Assembly: GCF_000829395.1 (NCBI RefSeq) | Contig: NZ_AP014680.1 | Coordinates: 1,054,001 to 1,118,000, forward strand | DNA: 64,000 nucleotides | Origin: Paucilactobacillus hokkaidonensis JCM 18461 | GTDB lineage: Bacteria > Bacillota > Bacilli > Lactobacillales > Lactobacillaceae | Direction of reading: 5' to 3' | Part shown: positions 1-57,240 of the stretch, in pieces | Numbering within the stretch: position 1 is the stretch's first letter | Layout: each line of letters starts with the position of its first letter | Made by a program: the position numbers and the translations under genes | Notes under the pieces: generated by a model | What the model saw: only the letters and a program-made list of their open reading frames with translations | Databases searched by the model: none | What the model was told of the DNA's origin: nothing

Positions 1-216
1 CCAATTCAAAGAGCCAAAATTGAAGAAACAACTGCACTCGGTGCGGCCTTTTTGGCAGGATTAGCAGTTGATTTCTGGCATGATCAAGATGAATTATTGC
101 AACTCAGCAGTCTCGGAGACGAATTCAAGCCGTCAATGAAACCAGAACGTTGTAGTAAAATATATTCAGGCTGGCAACAGGCTATTAAAGCAACACAGTA
201 TTTTAGTAGGCATTAA
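1..216 (+). CDS. glpK: Glycerol kinase, C-terminal end (partial)
   Basis: The window opens inside this gene; the last 71 codons are visible and end at a TAA. The visible part includes an EETTALGAAFLAG-type segment and ends with SGWQQAIKATQYF, which fits the C-terminal helix region of FGGY-family glycerol kinases (ATP-dependent phosphorylation of glycerol to glycerol 3-phosphate in the cytosol). The catalytic N-terminal part lies outside the window, so activity cannot be judged. A 110-bp hairpin element starts 20 bp after the stop and may terminate the transcript. Other FGGY sugar kinases are possible, but the tail fits GlpK best. Confidence 0.85.
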   Translation, partial: PIQRAKIEETTALGAAFLAGLAVDFWHDQDELLQLSSLGDEFKPSMKPERCSKIYSGWQQAIKATQYFSRH

Positions 217-236
217 ATTAATTGAACAAAAAGAGA

Positions 237-346
237 GTGAGAAAAAAGGCGGTTAGATTCTGAGCATAGCCTAGACTAACGAATGATCCGTACTTTGGAT
301 CGTTCGTTAGTCGTAGCTAAGCGGAAGAATCTGCCTTTTTTCTCAC
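237..346 (+). repeat. 110-bp long-hairpin intergenic repeat, copy 1
   Basis: This is an almost completely self-complementary element. The outer arms GTGAGAAAAAAGGC (237-250) and GCCTTTTTTCTCAC (333-346) pair perfectly. AGATTCT/AGAATCT pair next, and inner arms GACTAACGAATGATCC and GGATCGTTCGTTAGTC close a short loop. An unpaired internal segment (GAGCATAGCCTA facing GTAGCTAAGCGGA) separates the two stems. A second 110-bp copy lies in the opposite orientation at 55557-55666. The element sits just after glpK, between convergent genes, so it could act as a terminator; the U-rich 3' arm fits that. It is much longer and more structured than an ordinary terminator, and its dispersal suggests a repeat family. 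Confidence 0.8.
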
Positions 347-423
347 GTTTTAGAAATAATATTTGGGAAATATAACGAGGCAGCAACAGAAATATAGTTT
401 TTGCCCGGCCCATTAATTAGCAA

Positions 424-1236
424 TTATTGTGCTAGTTTTAAGTATTTTGTTAAATAATGAGCCAGCCCATCATGTTCATTATCTTCAGTCGTAGTATCAT
501 TAGCTACCTGTTTAATGCTTGGAATAGCATTCTTCATGGCAACGCCACGACCAGCATAACTCAGCATTTCTTCATCATTCGCCTCATCGCCAAAGGCAAT
601 TATATTTTGTTTGCTAATGTTATATTGTTTGGCAAGGTAGTCAACACCGCGAGCTTTTTGAATTCCCTTGGAGACTACTTCTAAGATACTGCTTGGTCCA
701 CCCCAGACACGCACATCAACTGCTGAACCATATTTTTCGGCAATCCGTTGGACGAGTAATTTTTCTTCTGCCGGATTATATTGTAAAGTTAATGCGGTAG
801 GGTCTGAAGTTAAATTAATTGAGTTTAAAATTTCATCCTTAGTAATAGCTGATGGGAAAAAGTCAGGCATAATATTACTTTCATGGTTAGCCCATAAATG
901 CAATTTGTTTTCTGCCGTGATAGTGCCAATTCCTAATTCTGAACCATGTTGCAATAAATCTAAGGCAATTTCTTTATCGATACTCATTTGATATTCGCGA
1001 TTCCATTGCTGATGGGGAATATGAGCTAAGGCACCATTGAAATTAACCATGGGTGATTTTAATCCAATCTGGTCATAAAAATTGGCGGAAATGCGATATG
1101 GTCGACCAGTAACGATACTAACAATATGGCCATTTTTAGCGGCCTGGCGTAAAGTTTTAATGGTTGTGGCTGACAGTTGCGACTGATTATTCAAAGTTGT
1201 ACCATCAAGATCGATGGCAATCAAATGTTGATTCAT
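424..1236 (-). CDS. Cof-type HAD-superfamily phosphatase
   Basis: A 270-residue cytosolic hydrolase of the Cof/YidA branch of the HAD superfamily, which dephosphorylates small sugar phosphates or nucleotides such as FMN; the substrate cannot be told from sequence. Motif I is DLDGT with nucleophile Asp9 and acid/base Asp11. Motif II is the Thr of the SIVTGR segment. Motif IV is GDEANDEEML near residue 216. The large C2-type cap lies between motifs II and III. Length is normal for Cof proteins. An AGGATG ribosome binding site precedes the ATG. The gene is monocistronic and convergent with glpK, sharing the hairpin repeat between them. Confidence 0.85.
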   Translation of the reverse strand: MNQHLIAIDLDGTTLNNQSQLSATTIKTLRQAAKNGHIVSIVTGRPYRISANFYDQIGLKSPMVNFNGALAHIPHQQWNREYQMSIDKEIALDLLQHGSELGIGTITAENKLHLWANHESNIMPDFFPSAITKDEILNSINLTSDPTALTLQYNPAEEKLLVQRIAEKYGSAVDVRVWGGPSSILEVVSKGIQKARGVDYLAKQYNISKQNIIAFGDEANDEEMLSYAGRGVAMKNAIPSIKQVANDTTTEDNEHDGLAHYLTKYLKLAQ

Positions 1237-2813: not shown

Positions 2814-4000
2814 GCCCGATTTAAAATCGAAGTGCAACACCAGTAAACTATACAAATAGGCCATGGAGACCTAAACTCTAAGTGACAAAACTCGAGAAAG
2901 GAAGTCTCCATGACCCAAACTAAGAATAGCACTAAGAAACAATACCAACAACTGCAACCAGAAGAACGAGGTATTATCCAAATATTGCATGATCAATGTA
3001 ATTCCATCCGTCAAATAGCCTATCGACTACATCGTAGTCCCAGCACTGTAAGCCGTGAGATTAGGCGTGGTACTGTCAAGCAGCGTAACTCTGACTATCT
3101 GTTTTTCACTGATTATTACGCAGAAACTGGTCAGATAATGTACAAAAATAACCGAACACATTGTCATTCCAAGGGCCTACTAAAGCCCTGCTGGCTCTTC
3201 TTCAAGATGTTAGAGCAGGCGCTTAAACAGCATCCTAGAGTAGACAGCGTTGATGGCTTTATTCATCGATTCAAAGGGCTTCACCCGGAGTGTCGATATC
3301 CATCAGTTCCAACGGTATACCGGTATATTGACCAAGGATTGCTAAACTTGAAAAATAGTGATTTACCACAAAAACTACGACGCCACATTAAGGGCAACCA
3401 CAACCATCAACGACATAATAAGAAGATCTTAGGTACTTCAATTGAGCAAAGACCCTCTGTGGTTGATGATCGAACTACGTTCGGTAACTGGGAAGGTGAG
3501 CTAGTTAAAGGCAAACGAATCGCTTCAGAACCGTCGCTATTAACGATTACGGAACGGAAAAGCCGGTTGGAATTGATCATTAAGATTCCCAATTATCACG
3601 CTGATACCTGTTTAGATGCACTTCAAAAGGTTATCAATCAGCACAACTCAAAGTGGTTCAAATCCATCACATTTGATAATGGAAGTGAATTTTATCTGCT
3701 TTCAAAAGTACATGGTACTCAGATCTACTTTGCCCATCCATATTCACCTTGGGAACGCGGCAGCAATGAGAATGCCAATGGCCTAATTCGAGAGTATATT
3801 CCTAAGGGCCTGTCGCTAAAGCAGTTCTCAGAAGATCAAATCACTCGGATTCAAAACGCAATCAATGCCAAGCTTCGCAAGTCACTTAAATATCTAAGTT
3901 CCAAAACATGTTTCAATCAATACACAACGTGCTAGTTTCAGGTTCCTAAACCAATTCTTGGTTTGCGTAACAGGTGTTGCACTTGATTTGACAATTCGGG
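2814..4000 (+). mobile_element. IS30-family insertion sequence
   Basis: An element of about 1.19 kb carrying one transposase gene. The terminal inverted repeats are imperfect and about 27 bp long. The left end begins CCCGATTT and contains AAGTGCAACACC (2830-2841). The right end, read inward, begins CCCGAATT and contains the same 12-mer (complement at 3973-3984). The ends are flanked by the 13-bp direct repeats at 2801 and 4001. It is inserted in the gap between the rRNA methylase gene and the terminator of the mevalonate operon, so no gene is visibly disrupted. Ends are inferred from inverted-repeat alignment and could be off by one or two bases. Confidence 0.82.
2910..3935 (+). CDS. IS30-family transposase
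   Basis: A 341-residue transposase. Residues 20-55 form the helix-turn-helix typical of IS30 (RQIAYRLHRSPSTVSREIRRG). The RNase H-fold catalytic core follows: second acid Asp256 in TFDNG and third acid Glu287 in ERGSNENANGLIREY, with the usual spacing of about 30 residues. The first acid, normally the Asp of a WEGDL-type motif, reads WEGEL here, placing Glu197 at that position. This may be a natural variant or an inactivating change. The frame is otherwise intact and full length. The start follows AAAGGAAG. Confidence 0.93.
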   Translation: MTQTKNSTKKQYQQLQPEERGIIQILHDQCNSIRQIAYRLHRSPSTVSREIRRGTVKQRNSDYLFFTDYYAETGQIMYKNNRTHCHSKGLLKPCWLFFKMLEQALKQHPRVDSVDGFIHRFKGLHPECRYPSVPTVYRYIDQGLLNLKNSDLPQKLRRHIKGNHNHQRHNKKILGTSIEQRPSVVDDRTTFGNWEGELVKGKRIASEPSLLTITERKSRLELIIKIPNYHADTCLDALQKVINQHNSKWFKSITFDNGSEFYLLSKVHGTQIYFAHPYSPWERGSNENANGLIREYIPKGLSLKQFSEDQITRIQNAINAKLRKSLKYLSSKTCFNQYTTC

Positions 4001-4013
4001 TAATATAATTATT
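4001..4013. repeat. Right 13-bp direct repeat flanking IS30
   Basis: The second copy of TAATATAATTATT, identical to 2801-2813 and directly abutting the right IS30 end (CGGG at 3997-4000). Removing the element and one repeat would restore an AT-rich intergenic sequence leading straight into the mevalonate-operon terminator. Confidence 0.5.
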
Positions 4014-4014
4014 T

Positions 4015-4052
4015 AAAAAAAGATTGTAAAACAAATGTTTTACAATCTTTTT
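4015..4052 (-). terminator. Terminator of the mevalonate operon
   Basis: Perfect arms AAAGATTGTAAAAC and GTTTTACAATCTTT with an ATTT loop, followed on the minus strand by a run of seven T. The upstream arm contains the fni stop codon, so the hairpin starts inside the last codons of that gene. The complementary A-run makes it look usable from both strands. Confidence 0.88.
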
Positions 4053-5086
4053 AGTCCACGTTGTTTTGTATAGTTATTTAGTTCTGCTGATAAAACATAC
4101 GGGACAGAAGGTAGTTCTTGAAATTTATTCACCCCACATAGCAGTAAAAGGCGTTGGACTTCAGTCTCCCAATTACTTAGTACTGTGTCTAATGCATCAA
4201 TTCCATCAGTCATTAAAACGTGGAGAAAATATCCAGCAACGCCAACCGCATTAGCACCTAAAATACCACTTTTAATCACATCTACAGGTGATGAAATGCC
4301 ACCAGAAGCAAAAATTGTTAGTTTCTGATTAAATTGTTGGGCTTCTAAGAGTGATTCAGGGGTGGTTTGACCCCATGACTTTAGATCATCAAATTGATTA
4401 TCATGATTACGCCGATTTTCAATTTGAGCAAAGTTGGTACCACCACGACCACTGACGTTAACGTATTTAACACCAACGTCAACAAGCTGTTGTAGCGTTT
4501 GCTTGTCCATGCCAAACCCAACTTCTTTAACAATGATGGGTACTGTAAGCTGATTAACTAGCTTTTCAATATTATTTAACCACCTAAACGTTCTTGAACC
4601 TTCAGGCATGGTCAATTCCTGTGCTACATTAACATGTAGTTCCAGGGCATTTGCTGCTAACATTTCAATTGCCTGGTTCGCTCTGGTCACGGATGTTTCT
4701 GCACTTAGATTAGCAAAAATAATACCAGTTGGATTTTCCTCTCGGATTATTTTAAAACTGGAGATTGCATTGGCATCATTTAAAGCAATACTTTGTGAGC
4801 CACTGGCCATTGCTAAGTGGTGTTTTGCCGCTAAAAATGCTAATTGACGATTTAACTGTTCAGTTTTATCACTACCACCAGTCATTGCTTCAATATAAAA
4901 AGGGGTATCCAAAATCAAATTTTTATTGAGACATGTTTGCAGCGAAATATCATCAATTGACTTCTCAGGGAAACTACGGTGAATGATTCTGACTTGGTCA
5001 AATTCATCCACCGTGTGAGCTGCATTATAGTATTTTTGGGCTAAGGAAACATGTTCATCTTTTCTGTGCGCATGGCTTGATTCCAT
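4040..5086 (-). CDS. fni: Type 2 isopentenyl-diphosphate delta-isomerase
   Basis: A 348-residue FMN- and NADPH-dependent enzyme interconverting isopentenyl and dimethylallyl diphosphate. Visible features are the N-terminal segment around FDQVRIIHRSFPE, the FYIEAMTGG substrate/FMN loop, the LHVNVAQELTMPEG segment, VKEVGFGMDK, the VSGRGGTNF phosphate loop and a glycine-rich ASGGI segment near the FMN phosphate. Length is typical of the family. It is the last gene of mvaK1-mvaD-mvaK2-fni, 13 bp after mvaK2, and supplies both C5 units for undecaprenyl phosphate and related lipids. It is unrelated to the zinc-dependent type 1 isomerase. Confidence 0.93.
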   Translation of the reverse strand: MESSHAHRKDEHVSLAQKYYNAAHTVDEFDQVRIIHRSFPEKSIDDISLQTCLNKNLILDTPFYIEAMTGGSDKTEQLNRQLAFLAAKHHLAMASGSQSIALNDANAISSFKIIREENPTGIIFANLSAETSVTRANQAIEMLAANALELHVNVAQELTMPEGSRTFRWLNNIEKLVNQLTVPIIVKEVGFGMDKQTLQQLVDVGVKYVNVSGRGGTNFAQIENRRNHDNQFDDLKSWGQTTPESLLEAQQFNQKLTIFASGGISSPVDVIKSGILGANAVGVAGYFLHVLMTDGIDALDTVLSNWETEVQRLLLLCGVNKFQELPSVPYVLSAELNNYTKQRGLKRL

Positions 5087-17945: not shown

Positions 17946-18336
17946 TTGCAAATTTTGGGTGATTGCGGCCGGTTTTGGATCGGCTGAGGAAAGTCCATGC
18001 TCGCACAGGCTGTGATGCTTGTAGTGTTCGTGCTCGGTGAAAAAATAAGCCGGGGGACCATTTTTATGGTTACGGCGGGAAAACCGGCTAAGGTCTCTGA
18101 CTATGCCCTAGTATTCCTGAAAAGTGCCACAGTGACGAAGCAATATAGGAAACTATATTGATGGAACGCGGTAAACCCCTCGAGCGGGAAACCCAAACTT
18201 ATGGTAGGGGAGCTTCACATAGGGAATTGAACCGATTGTGAGGGGAGACTTTTTAGTCTCGAGATAGATGATTGCCACTGTATGATCGAGCCTGAAGATT
18301 GTACTTCGACAAAACATGGCTTACAGAAATTTGCAT
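17946..18336 (+). ncRNA. rnpB: RNase P RNA (class B)
   Basis: The catalytic RNA that removes 5' leaders from pre-tRNA. Conserved elements are GAGGAAAGTCC near 17975, a long purine-rich stretch around GGTAAACCCCTCGAGCGGG near 18170, ATAGATGATTGCC near 18264, and ACAAAACATGGCTTACAG near 18310. Helix P1 is formed by TGCAAATTT (17947-17955) and AAATTTGCA (18327-18335), which fixes both ends to within a few bases. The location after gpsB and before an rlmL-type gene is the conserved Firmicute position. Confidence 0.95.
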
Positions 18337-55460: not shown

Positions 55461-55556
55461 GACAATACTCTCCTCCCACAATTATGTATGAGGATGGGCA
55501 AAAACTTTATTTTTGCTGCGTCCCCTTTATCATTTACGACCTTTTATTGCTAAAAC

Positions 55557-55666
55557 GTGGAAAATAAGGCAGATTCTTCCGCTTAGCTACAATTAACAAA
55601 CGATCCAAAGTACGGATCATTCGTTAATCTAGGCTATGCTCAGAATCTAATCGCCTTATTTTCCAC
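55557..55666 (-). repeat. 110-bp long-hairpin intergenic repeat, copy 2
   Basis: Read on the minus strand this has the same length and layout as copy 1 (237-346). Its outer arms are GTGGAAAATAAGGC and GCCTTATTTTCCAC (perfect), the inner stem starts GATTAACGAATGATCC, and the internal segments GAGCATAGCCTA and GTAGCTAAGCGGAAG are unchanged. Several differences from copy 1 occur as matched pairs that keep the helix. It lies 97 bp after eno in eno's reading direction, just as copy 1 follows glpK in glpK's direction, and precedes the ATPase gene. Confidence 0.8.
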
Positions 55667-55680
55667 TCTCATTATTATCA

Positions 55681-55763: not shown

Positions 55764-57050
55764 TTAATCAAAGTCGACATCATTGGGAAACTTTGCCAAC
55801 CGTGAACCGTTTTCACCCAGTTCTTCTTCAATCCGCAAAAGTTGATTATACTTTTCAACTCGTTCAGATCGTGCTGGAGCACCACTCTTCAATTGTGAAG
55901 AGTTAGTTGCAACGGTAAAGTCTGCTACAAACGTATCACCGGTTTCACCAGAACGATGTGACATCATCGTTGTGTAACCATTTTTACGTGCAATTCTAAT
56001 TGCTTCTAGGGTTTCAGTAACAGTCCCAATCTGATTTAATTTAATCAAAAAGCTGTTAGCCATTCCCATTTTAATTGCCTTGCGGAATAATTCAGGGTTG
56101 GTGCAGACGTTATCATCCGTCACAATCTGTACTTGATCGCCAACTTTTTTGGCAAATTTAGCAAAATTGTCCCAGTCATCTTCACCATAAGGATCCTCAA
56201 TTGAAATAATTTCAGGAAATTCACTTAATAATTTAACGTAATAATCACCCATTTCATCAGGAGTTTTAACAGTTCCTTCAAAGTTATAATTACCAGAATC
56301 GTGATCATAGAAATGCGATGCAGCAGCATCAAAAGCAATGGCAATTTCTTTGCCTGGTGTATAACCAGCCTTCTCAATTGCTTCATGCAGCATCTTTAAA
56401 GCTTCTTCTGATGAATTTAAGTCAGGTGCAAAACCACCCTCATCACCTAAACCAGTTTGATAGCCGGCAGCTTCGATAACCTTTTTAAGGGTGTGATATG
56501 TGTTAGCAATTTTTTCAAATCCATCACGAAAACTTGTCCGTTCAACGGGTGTGATCATGAATTCCTGCATATCAATCCCATTATCAGCATGTTCGCCACC
56601 GTTGATAACATTATGGAAGGTTTGTGGTAACTCGAGGTCTGTACCGCCTAGATAACGGTACAACGGAACTTTTTGATAGTTAGCCGCAGCACGACAAGTT
56701 GCCATTGATACACCCAAAATTGCATTAGCGCCTAAACGTGCCTTATTTTTAGTACCATCTAAATCAATCATGGCTTGGTCAATTTGTGCTTGATTAAATG
56801 GATCAGCACCATGTAAGATCTTGTTAATTTCAGTATTAACATTGTTAACAGCCTTTGAAACACCTTTTCCCTGCAGTCGATCCCCACCATCACGTAATTC
56901 GACAGCCTCTAATTCACCAGTAGATGCACCAGAAGGGACTTCTGCGCGACCAAGGGTGCCATCTGATAAAATGACATCTGCCTCGACAGTTGGATTACCA
57001 CGAGAATCAAAAATCTCACGGGCCTTTACCTTCTCAATATAAACAGACAT
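55764..57050 (-). CDS. eno: Enolase
   Basis: A 428-residue glycolytic enzyme interconverting 2-phosphoglycerate and phosphoenolpyruvate; a dimer or octamer with Mg2+. EIFDSRGNPTVEADV, the catalytic-Glu loop GDEGGFAP, the Mg ligands in AFDAAASHF, SIEDPYGEDDW and VTDDN, the catalytic Lys in IKLNQIGT, and the signature MMSHRSGETGDTFVADF are all intact. GGAGGAAG precedes the ATG. The predicted promoter places the transcript start at a perfect 15-bp hairpin. The other lower-glycolysis genes are not in this window. Confidence 0.96.
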   Translation of the reverse strand: MSVYIEKVKAREIFDSRGNPTVEADVILSDGTLGRAEVPSGASTGELEAVELRDGGDRLQGKGVSKAVNNVNTEINKILHGADPFNQAQIDQAMIDLDGTKNKARLGANAILGVSMATCRAAANYQKVPLYRYLGGTDLELPQTFHNVINGGEHADNGIDMQEFMITPVERTSFRDGFEKIANTYHTLKKVIEAAGYQTGLGDEGGFAPDLNSSEEALKMLHEAIEKAGYTPGKEIAIAFDAAASHFYDHDSGNYNFEGTVKTPDEMGDYYVKLLSEFPEIISIEDPYGEDDWDNFAKFAKKVGDQVQIVTDDNVCTNPELFRKAIKMGMANSFLIKLNQIGTVTETLEAIRIARKNGYTTMMSHRSGETGDTFVADFTVATNSSQLKSGAPARSERVEKYNQLLRIEEELGENGSRLAKFPNDVDFD

Positions 57051-57081: not shown

Positions 57082-57131
57082 GACGTCTACCATAAAATGG
57101 GACCCAATCAGGTCGCTTTATGGTAGACGTC
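57082..57131 (-). terminator. Hairpin upstream of eno (ppaC terminator and/or eno leader stem)
   Basis: GACGTCTACCATAAA and TTTATGGTAGACGTC (57082-57096 and 57117-57131) pair perfectly, with an inner GACC/GGTC stem. On the minus strand TTTTTT follows, as in an intrinsic terminator for ppaC. The predicted eno start site lies at its 5' base, so it may instead be the 5' stem-loop of eno mRNA. Confidence 0.75.
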
Positions 57132-57140
57132 ATCAAATTA

Positions 57141-57169
57141 CTTATATAATTATTTATGGCGAACGTCAT
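57141..57169 (-). promoter_or_regulatory. Predicted eno promoter
   Basis: -35 ATGACG (57169-57164), a 17-bp spacer and -10 TATAAG (57146-57141). Initiation about 7 bases further would begin at the 15-bp hairpin. The alternative is read-through from ppaC past the hairpin. Confidence 0.55.
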
Positions 57170-57240
57170 CGCCTATTTTGTTGCAGTTACAACATACCAC
57201 TTTTTAGTATTAATAACAATTGAATCTAATCTACAAAATA

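What the first reader, a model, noticed from the sequence alone, without database searches (positions are those of the whole stretch)
237..346. Dispersed 110-bp hairpin element whose two copies differ by compensating changes
Seen: the copies at 237-346 (plus) and 55557-55666 (minus) have identical length and layout. The outer arms differ at three positions (A-T to G-C, G-C to A-T, A-T to T-A) and the inner stem at one (C-G to T-A), each changed on both sides of the helix; wobble pairs explain the rest. The unpaired internal segments GAGCATAGCCTA and TAGCTAAGCGGAAG are unchanged. Paired changes in stems with fixed internal loops are what a selected RNA or cruciform structure looks like. Both follow the 3' end of a central-metabolism gene (glpK, eno) in the same orientation.
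Basis: seen in the sequence. Interest (0 to 1): 0.75.

Follow-up and report, generated by a model that had tools for sequence, protein, structure and literature searches.

The report
Dispersed 3'-UTR RNA hairpin repeat family
The two hairpins belong to a large, seemingly undescribed family of scattered ~117-base repeats (about 134 copies in this genome, present across the lactic-acid-bacteria order) that mostly sit just behind gene stop codons and whose sequence changes are paired so that they keep the same folded single-strand, probably RNA, shape.

Summary
The genome holds about 134 copies at 106 sites. A covariance model matches 171 of 301 genomes of the family (23 of 40 genera) and other families of the order, but nothing else in a phylum-wide sample. 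In 44 diverse copies 92% of pair cells are paired and 33 of 43 pairs covary (score 0.73, slid controls at most 0.16). G-U outnumber A-C mismatches 3.5 to 5:1 on one strand, pointing to selection on a single strand, most simply RNA, not a cruciform. Copies start a median 3 nt behind the stop codon of a co-oriented gene. At glpK five congeners have only a plain terminator, so this copy is a gain. No Rfam family, target duplication or resident HUH transposase was found; an IS110-family transposon repeatedly abuts these units. Most likely a mobile, non-autonomous repeat kept as a folded 3'-UTR element, like ERIC or BOX. The molecular function (mRNA 3'-end stability or processing) is inferred, not shown.

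The parts
237..346 (+). Long hairpin of copy 1 (A subfamily, short form); the family model matches window 234-350 (AGAG...CGTTT included)
351..376 (+). Linker behind the hairpin, shared with other own copies
377..411 (+). Second, terminator-like hairpin of the composite unit; in the five congeners the glpK gap holds only an ordinary terminator
55557..55666 (-). Long hairpin of copy 2 (A subfamily, short form); model match window 55553-55669
55490..55525 (-). Second, terminator-like hairpin of copy 2
1..216 (+). 3' end of glpK, the co-oriented gene upstream of copy 1
424..1236 (-). Convergent gene downstream of copy 1; same gene order in five congeners without the element
55764..57050 (-). Enolase paralogue upstream of copy 2 (co-oriented)

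Best explanation
A dispersed, non-autonomous repeat that spread through the chromosome as DNA and is maintained as a folded single strand, most likely RNA, at the 3' ends of transcripts. SHOWN: it is a large order-wide family; its stems are kept by paired changes; the folded strand has one fixed sense; copies mostly start at or just behind the stop codon of the co-oriented upstream gene; and the glpK copy was gained in this lineage at a site that is a plain terminator in congeners. INFERRED: it is transcribed as part of the upstream mRNA; the conserved foot (AGAG...CGUUU), the GGUU bulge and the inner loops are a docking site for a host RNA-binding protein or nuclease; and the hairpin protects or cuts the 3' end of the upstream message, with termination itself done by a separate hairpin downstream where there is one. 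How it moves is unknown; a trans-acting enzyme or recombination between copies would both fit.
For: Copy number: 115 model matches in the genome, 134 copies at 106 sites after full retrieval, 19 sites being tandem arrays of 2 to 7. Distribution: 171/301 genomes and 23/40 genera of the family, further families of the order, 1/299 (itself) in a phylum sample. Covariation: 92.4% of cells paired, 33/43 pairs changed on both sides, score 0.729 against 0.097-0.155 for slid structures; 0.877 in further own copies and 0.768 in other families of the order. Strand: G-T:A-C 144:29, 442:80 and 110:16; 90:26 after leaving out columns where G-T is commonest, sequence bootstrap 2.4-5.8. Position: 52 of 67 sites with a co-oriented upstream gene start within 30 nt of its stop, median 3 nt; the 3' end lies that close to a facing stop in only 4 of 38 convergent gaps. 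Gain: the glpK gap in five congeners has a terminator and no element. Retention with paired changes in trp leaders of three species.
Against: No expression data: transcription, a binding partner and any effect on mRNA are not shown. The orientation bias in co-directional gaps is modest for all own copies (29 with, 19 against) and clearer for the A subfamily (14:3 own, 33:17 elsewhere). G-T against A-C cannot separate RNA from top-strand ssDNA. The counts do not model phylogeny. A terminator-like hairpin within 160 nt downstream was found for only 29 of 134 copies, so element plus terminator is not general by that crude scan.
Confidence: 0.55

Rival explanations
1. A purely parasitic MITE-like element. 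The hairpin matters only as single-stranded DNA (or as a transposase target) during mobilisation, the host derives no function, and 3' ends are simply where insertions are tolerated or where terminator hairpins serve as targets.
For: Lineage-specific gain into a terminator at glpK; A units in the apex of B-type hairpins at L003 and L008; near-identical recent copies; convergent gaps are preferred; tandem arrays as in REP/BIMEs. G-T tolerance on one strand would also fit a strand-specific ssDNA intermediate.
Against: No target duplication in 133 single copies; no HUH Y1 transposase in the own genome nor in 18 of 27 element-rich genomes; no transposase-like ORF recurs beside copies as a common partner, and the IS110 found beside some copies is absent from most element-rich genomes. 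Some copies are kept at the same place over species divergence with paired changes.
Confidence: 0.3
2. An ordinary intrinsic transcription terminator family, dispersed as a unit.
For: Behind stop codons, convergent gaps preferred, very stable hairpin (-58 to -64 kcal/mol).
Against: Only 14 of 134 copies have 5 or more T in the 9 nt after the stem. Terminators do not need conserved internal loops, a conserved bulge and conserved foot bases across an order. Some copies lie inside leaders or upstream of genes.
Confidence: 0.1
3. Paired changes arise without selection, by template switching or gene conversion between the two arms (quasi-palindrome correction) or by ectopic conversion with other copies.
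For: Two tandem trp leaders have near-identical flanks while the hairpins differ by several paired changes, which conversion with another copy would produce in one step. Palindrome correction is an established process (general knowledge).
Against: Arm copying would erase the asymmetric internal loops, which persist across genera, and gives no reason for a strand-specific excess of G-T over A-C.
Confidence: 0.05

Closest known systems
ERIC (enterobacterial repetitive intergenic consensus)
   Same: About 120-nt dispersed imperfect palindrome with one long conserved stem-loop, intergenic, dozens to hundreds of copies. In Yersinia, ERIC at gene 3' ends alters upstream mRNA stability in an orientation-dependent way (PMC2229807; PMC10969869).
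   Different: Different taxa (Lactobacillales only in our samples), other length and sequence, asymmetric conserved loops and foot; effect on mRNA untested.
BOX elements of streptococci
   Same: Modular structured repeats with optional hairpin modules, nesting of repeat families in one another, expressed as 5' and 3' extensions of operons; a BOX also lies in the pneumococcal trp T-box leader (PMC3049150), as A units do here.
   Different: boxA/B/C modules were not searched for; no streptococcal genome was recognised among the hits; ends here are AGAGYG...CRCGTTT.
Efa-1 of Enterococcus faecalis
   Same: 163-nt intergenic family, 65 matches, predicted as a pair of adjacent stem-loops (PMC2267715), like hairpin plus second hairpin here.
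   Different: It may be an enterococcal member of the same superfamily.
REP/BIME with RAYT (Y1 HUH) transposases
   Same: Imperfect palindromes with conserved bulge and foot, tandem arrays, use as target by insertion sequences (general knowledge).
   Different: 20-40 nt against about 117 nt; the own genome has no Y1 transposase.

Membership tests
MITE | Target-site duplication on insertion | tested here: not met
   No offset or length stands out in 133 single copies, best z about 3.4 in 700 tests; no clean TSD at the glpK empty site
MITE | Terminal inverted repeats | tested here: inconclusive
   The ends AGAGYG/CRCGTTT pair as the foot of the hairpin; the composite in one own lineage begins GAGAGTGGGCAA and ends TTGCCCATCCTC, but not in all copies
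MITE | Cognate transposase in the same or a related genome | tested here: inconclusive
   No recurrent partner ORF; Y1_Tnp absent from own genome; IS110 abuts some copies but is absent from most element-rich genomes; other transposase families not tested
REP (RAYT-linked) | Y1 HUH transposase (PF01797) in the genome | tested here: not met
   0 in own genome, 18 of 27 element-rich genomes without it
Intrinsic terminator | U-tract directly behind the stem | tested here: not met
   14 of 134 copies have 5 or more T in 9 nt
Known RNA families (Rfam 15) | Match at gathering score | tested here: not met
   None over the window copies or the diverged and non-Lactobacillaceae copies
Integron attC | 3' core site GTTRRRY | tested here: not met
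   3' end is CRCGTTT followed mostly by T or C, so the fourth base of the core is T, not a purine; integrase not searched
ERIC | 127-bp ERIC consensus | not tested
   Consensus not aligned; family absent from non-Lactobacillales genomes sampled
BOX | boxA-boxB-boxC sequence modules | not tested
   BOX models not at hand; architecture compared from PMC3049150 only
Efa-1 | Efa-1 sequence model | not testable with these tools
   Main text gives size and structure, no sequence

The most novel reading that the evidence does not exclude
An undescribed, order-wide superfamily of mobile 3'-UTR RNA elements in Lactobacillales, with a dedicated host protein that reads the conserved foot, bulge and inner loops and so controls the 3' ends of dozens of mRNAs per cell.
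Probability: 0.3. Interest if true: 0.8.

Novelty: new member of a known kind. Interest (0 to 1): 0.58.

Why it matters
A structured repeat with about 134 copies in one genome and copies in most sampled Lactobacillaceae genera should shape many 3' UTRs in industrially important bacteria, yet it has no Rfam family, and no held paper that we found names it or prints its motif. It offers a natural experiment for ERIC/BOX-type elements: the same hairpin with and without optional modules, at orthologous sites with and without the element, within one genus. The IS110-family transposon that repeatedly abuts the unit makes its targeting directly testable.

Tried and rejected
Rfam at gathering score and at relaxed E-values: nothing relevant. 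Plasmids: one weak hit on a Latilactobacillus curvatus plasmid, none with two other queries. Phages: none. Exact motif strings in 5.39 million papers: only unrelated hits. Partner gene by clustering the ORFs around 112 loci: only generic families such as ABC transporters. HUH transposase as mobiliser: not supported. IS110 as general mobiliser: absent from most element-rich genomes; it looks like a user of the element as target. Target duplications: an apparent signal came from tandem arrays and vanished in single copies. Integron attC resemblance (hairpin behind each stop codon): ends do not fit.

Full report
OBSERVATION. The two copies are as described. Of 11 differences in 110 bases, eight make four pairs changed on both sides, two turn G-C into G-U, and one (window 252) is in the unpaired bulge; four or more double changes by chance have P about 5e-5.

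A LARGE FAMILY. BLASTN of the window copy finds dozens of related places in the same genome. A covariance model R1 built from 44 diverse copies gives 115 matches in the genome. After fetching all places, R1 gives 134 non-overlapping copies at 106 sites, 19 of which are tandem arrays of 2 to 7 units; the 7-unit array has a 132-nt period. Copies occur in 5 of 7 genomes of the genus (own included) by BLASTN and in all seven by the model. A pattern scan gave named hits in Pediococcus, Latilactobacillus, Lactiplantibacillus, Agrilactobacillus, Companilactobacillus, Loigolactobacillus, Lapidilactobacillus, Levilactobacillus, Lacticaseibacillus and Paucilactobacillus. In a phylum-wide sample only the genome itself matched (1/299). 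One congener, G005, has a contig of the same length (263,209) as Paucilactobacillus vaccinostercus NZ_AYYY01000063.1, and the matching loci agree, so the window very likely comes from Paucilactobacillus.

ANATOMY. Consensus: AGAGYG - outer stem - CG-GGTT bulge - second stem - GAGCA - TAGC - CTA - long variable stem - GTA - GCTA - AGCGNA - stems back - CRCGTTT. In this genome the repeated unit continues with a linker and often a second, terminator-like hairpin. Two optional side hairpins of 47-48 nt occur: one between GAGCAT and AGCC, one between GCGGAAG and GAATCTG. They resemble each other's reverse complement and belong to a third repeat that also lies in B-type copies. A second subfamily, 'B', has the same ends and layout but other inner loops (GGAGTGTAACGG...TTGTTACACGTAG). 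Copies from other families of the order keep the foot and the bulge, with other inner loops.

STRUCTURE UNDER SELECTION. On the MAFFT alignment of 44 copies, which was not fitted to the structure, 92.4% of cells pair, 33 of 43 pairs have changes on both sides, and the covariation score is 0.729 against 0.097-0.155 for slid controls. Further own copies: 0.877; other families of the order: 0.768; these two alignments lean to the model. The 44-copy set was anchored on loop motifs, so loop constancy must not be read from it; among 12 own short-form copies stems differ more than internal loops (0.092 against 0.056 per site), a modest difference, and those too passed the loop-anchored filter.

WHICH STRAND. 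If a two-strand cruciform or arm-to-arm copying kept the arms alike, G-T and A-C mismatches would be equally common, because one is the other read on the opposite strand. They are not: 144:29, 442:80 and 110:16. Leaving out columns where G-T is the commonest pair, 90:26 in A1 (23 pairs against 6) and 233:88 in A4, bootstrap intervals 2.4-5.8 and 2.1-3.4. The strand that reads AGAGTG first is therefore the folded one. RNA is the simplest reading; top-strand ssDNA is not excluded.

WHERE IT SITS. Of 106 own sites, 38 are in convergent gaps, 29 in co-directional gaps with the transcript, 19 against it, 10 in divergent gaps, 8 overlap an ORF, 2 at edges. With a co-oriented upstream gene (67 sites) the element starts a median 3 nt behind the stop, 52 within 30 nt; values of -2 and -1 mean that the element supplies part of the stop codon. 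The 3' end is that close to a facing stop in only 4 of 38 convergent gaps. For the A subfamily alone co-directional gaps are 14 with and 3 against; in named species 33 to 17. ORFs were called by a simple longest-ORF rule.

GAIN AND RETENTION. The glpK gap has the same gene order in five congeners, all with just a terminator: the element is a gain in this species' lineage. Upstream of trpE and again downstream of trpG, A units lie inside T-box leaders (AAAGGTGGTACCGCGG) at the same place in three species; the left flank is almost unchanged while the stems differ by paired changes. Orthologous genes in different genera sometimes both carry a copy at the stop codon (for example L016 and L148, 71% protein identity), others differ in presence. 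So units are gained, can be kept for long times, and may be lost.

HOW IT MOVES. Unknown. No target duplication, no recurrent partner ORF, no Y1 transposase in the own genome. An IS110-family transposon (PF02371) has its right end CTTGACTAA[TA]CGTAGGAAA directly against the unit in 3 of 4 own copies, 2 of 2 in G005, and 3 of 4 in G486 from another family. It abuts either the 5' end of the hairpin or the 3' end of the second hairpin, so the unit looks like its target rather than part of it. IS110 is absent from most element-rich genomes tested, so it is not the general mobiliser.

MECHANISM. The best reading is a folded 3'-UTR element, spread as DNA and retained as RNA structure, whose foot, bulge and loops are read by a host factor and which changes the fate of the upstream message. 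ERIC in Yersinia is the working model for such an effect (PMC2229807). The strand, the structure, the placement and the gain are shown; transcription, partner and effect are inferred.

COMPARISON AND NOVELTY. No Rfam family fits and no held paper prints the motif except in unrelated contexts. The library lacks most subscription journals. Efa-1 of E. faecalis (163 nt, two adjacent stem-loops) may belong here and could not be tested. It is therefore rated a new member of a known kind (dispersed structured intergenic repeats), unusual for its taxonomic breadth and the strength of its covariation.

Noticed in passing
own genome C1:331-333 kb, 926-936 kb (L322-L324); G005 L326, L327; L101; G486 L328-L330: An IS110-family transposon abuts the repeat unit with the same right end (CTTGACTAA[TA]CGTAGGAAA) in several genomes of two families, as if it uses the unit as its target, like IS110/IS1111 elements at REP or attC sites.
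   Followed up: partly
own C1:1640885-1641800 (L298:1186-2101): Seven near-identical B-type units in tandem with a 132-nt period; smaller arrays at 18 other sites and in many relatives.
   Followed up: partly
L044:780-1420 and 3480-4140; L236; L237: Duplicated T-box leaders around trpE/trpG, each with an A unit (and an inverted second match) between Stem I and the antiterminator; parallel to the BOX element in the pneumococcal trp leader.
   Followed up: partly
own C1:79428, 131341, 327911, 411775, 544255, 843348 and others: A 47-55-nt hairpin module (ACTTGCCG-N-TTT-CGGC-TTAGTA...GACATCG), 18 matches in the genome, inserted at fixed points of A and B units in either orientation; the two inserts of one unit can also pair with each other.
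   Followed up: partly
window 57117-57182 (-), upstream of 55764-57050 (-): A fluoride riboswitch (Rfam RF01734) lies directly upstream of the enolase gene; the genome has a second enolase (C1:1623444-1624685, 55% identical), so this looks like a fluoride-inducible enolase paralogue.
   Followed up: no
window 17951-18328 (+): Class B RNase P RNA.
   Followed up: no
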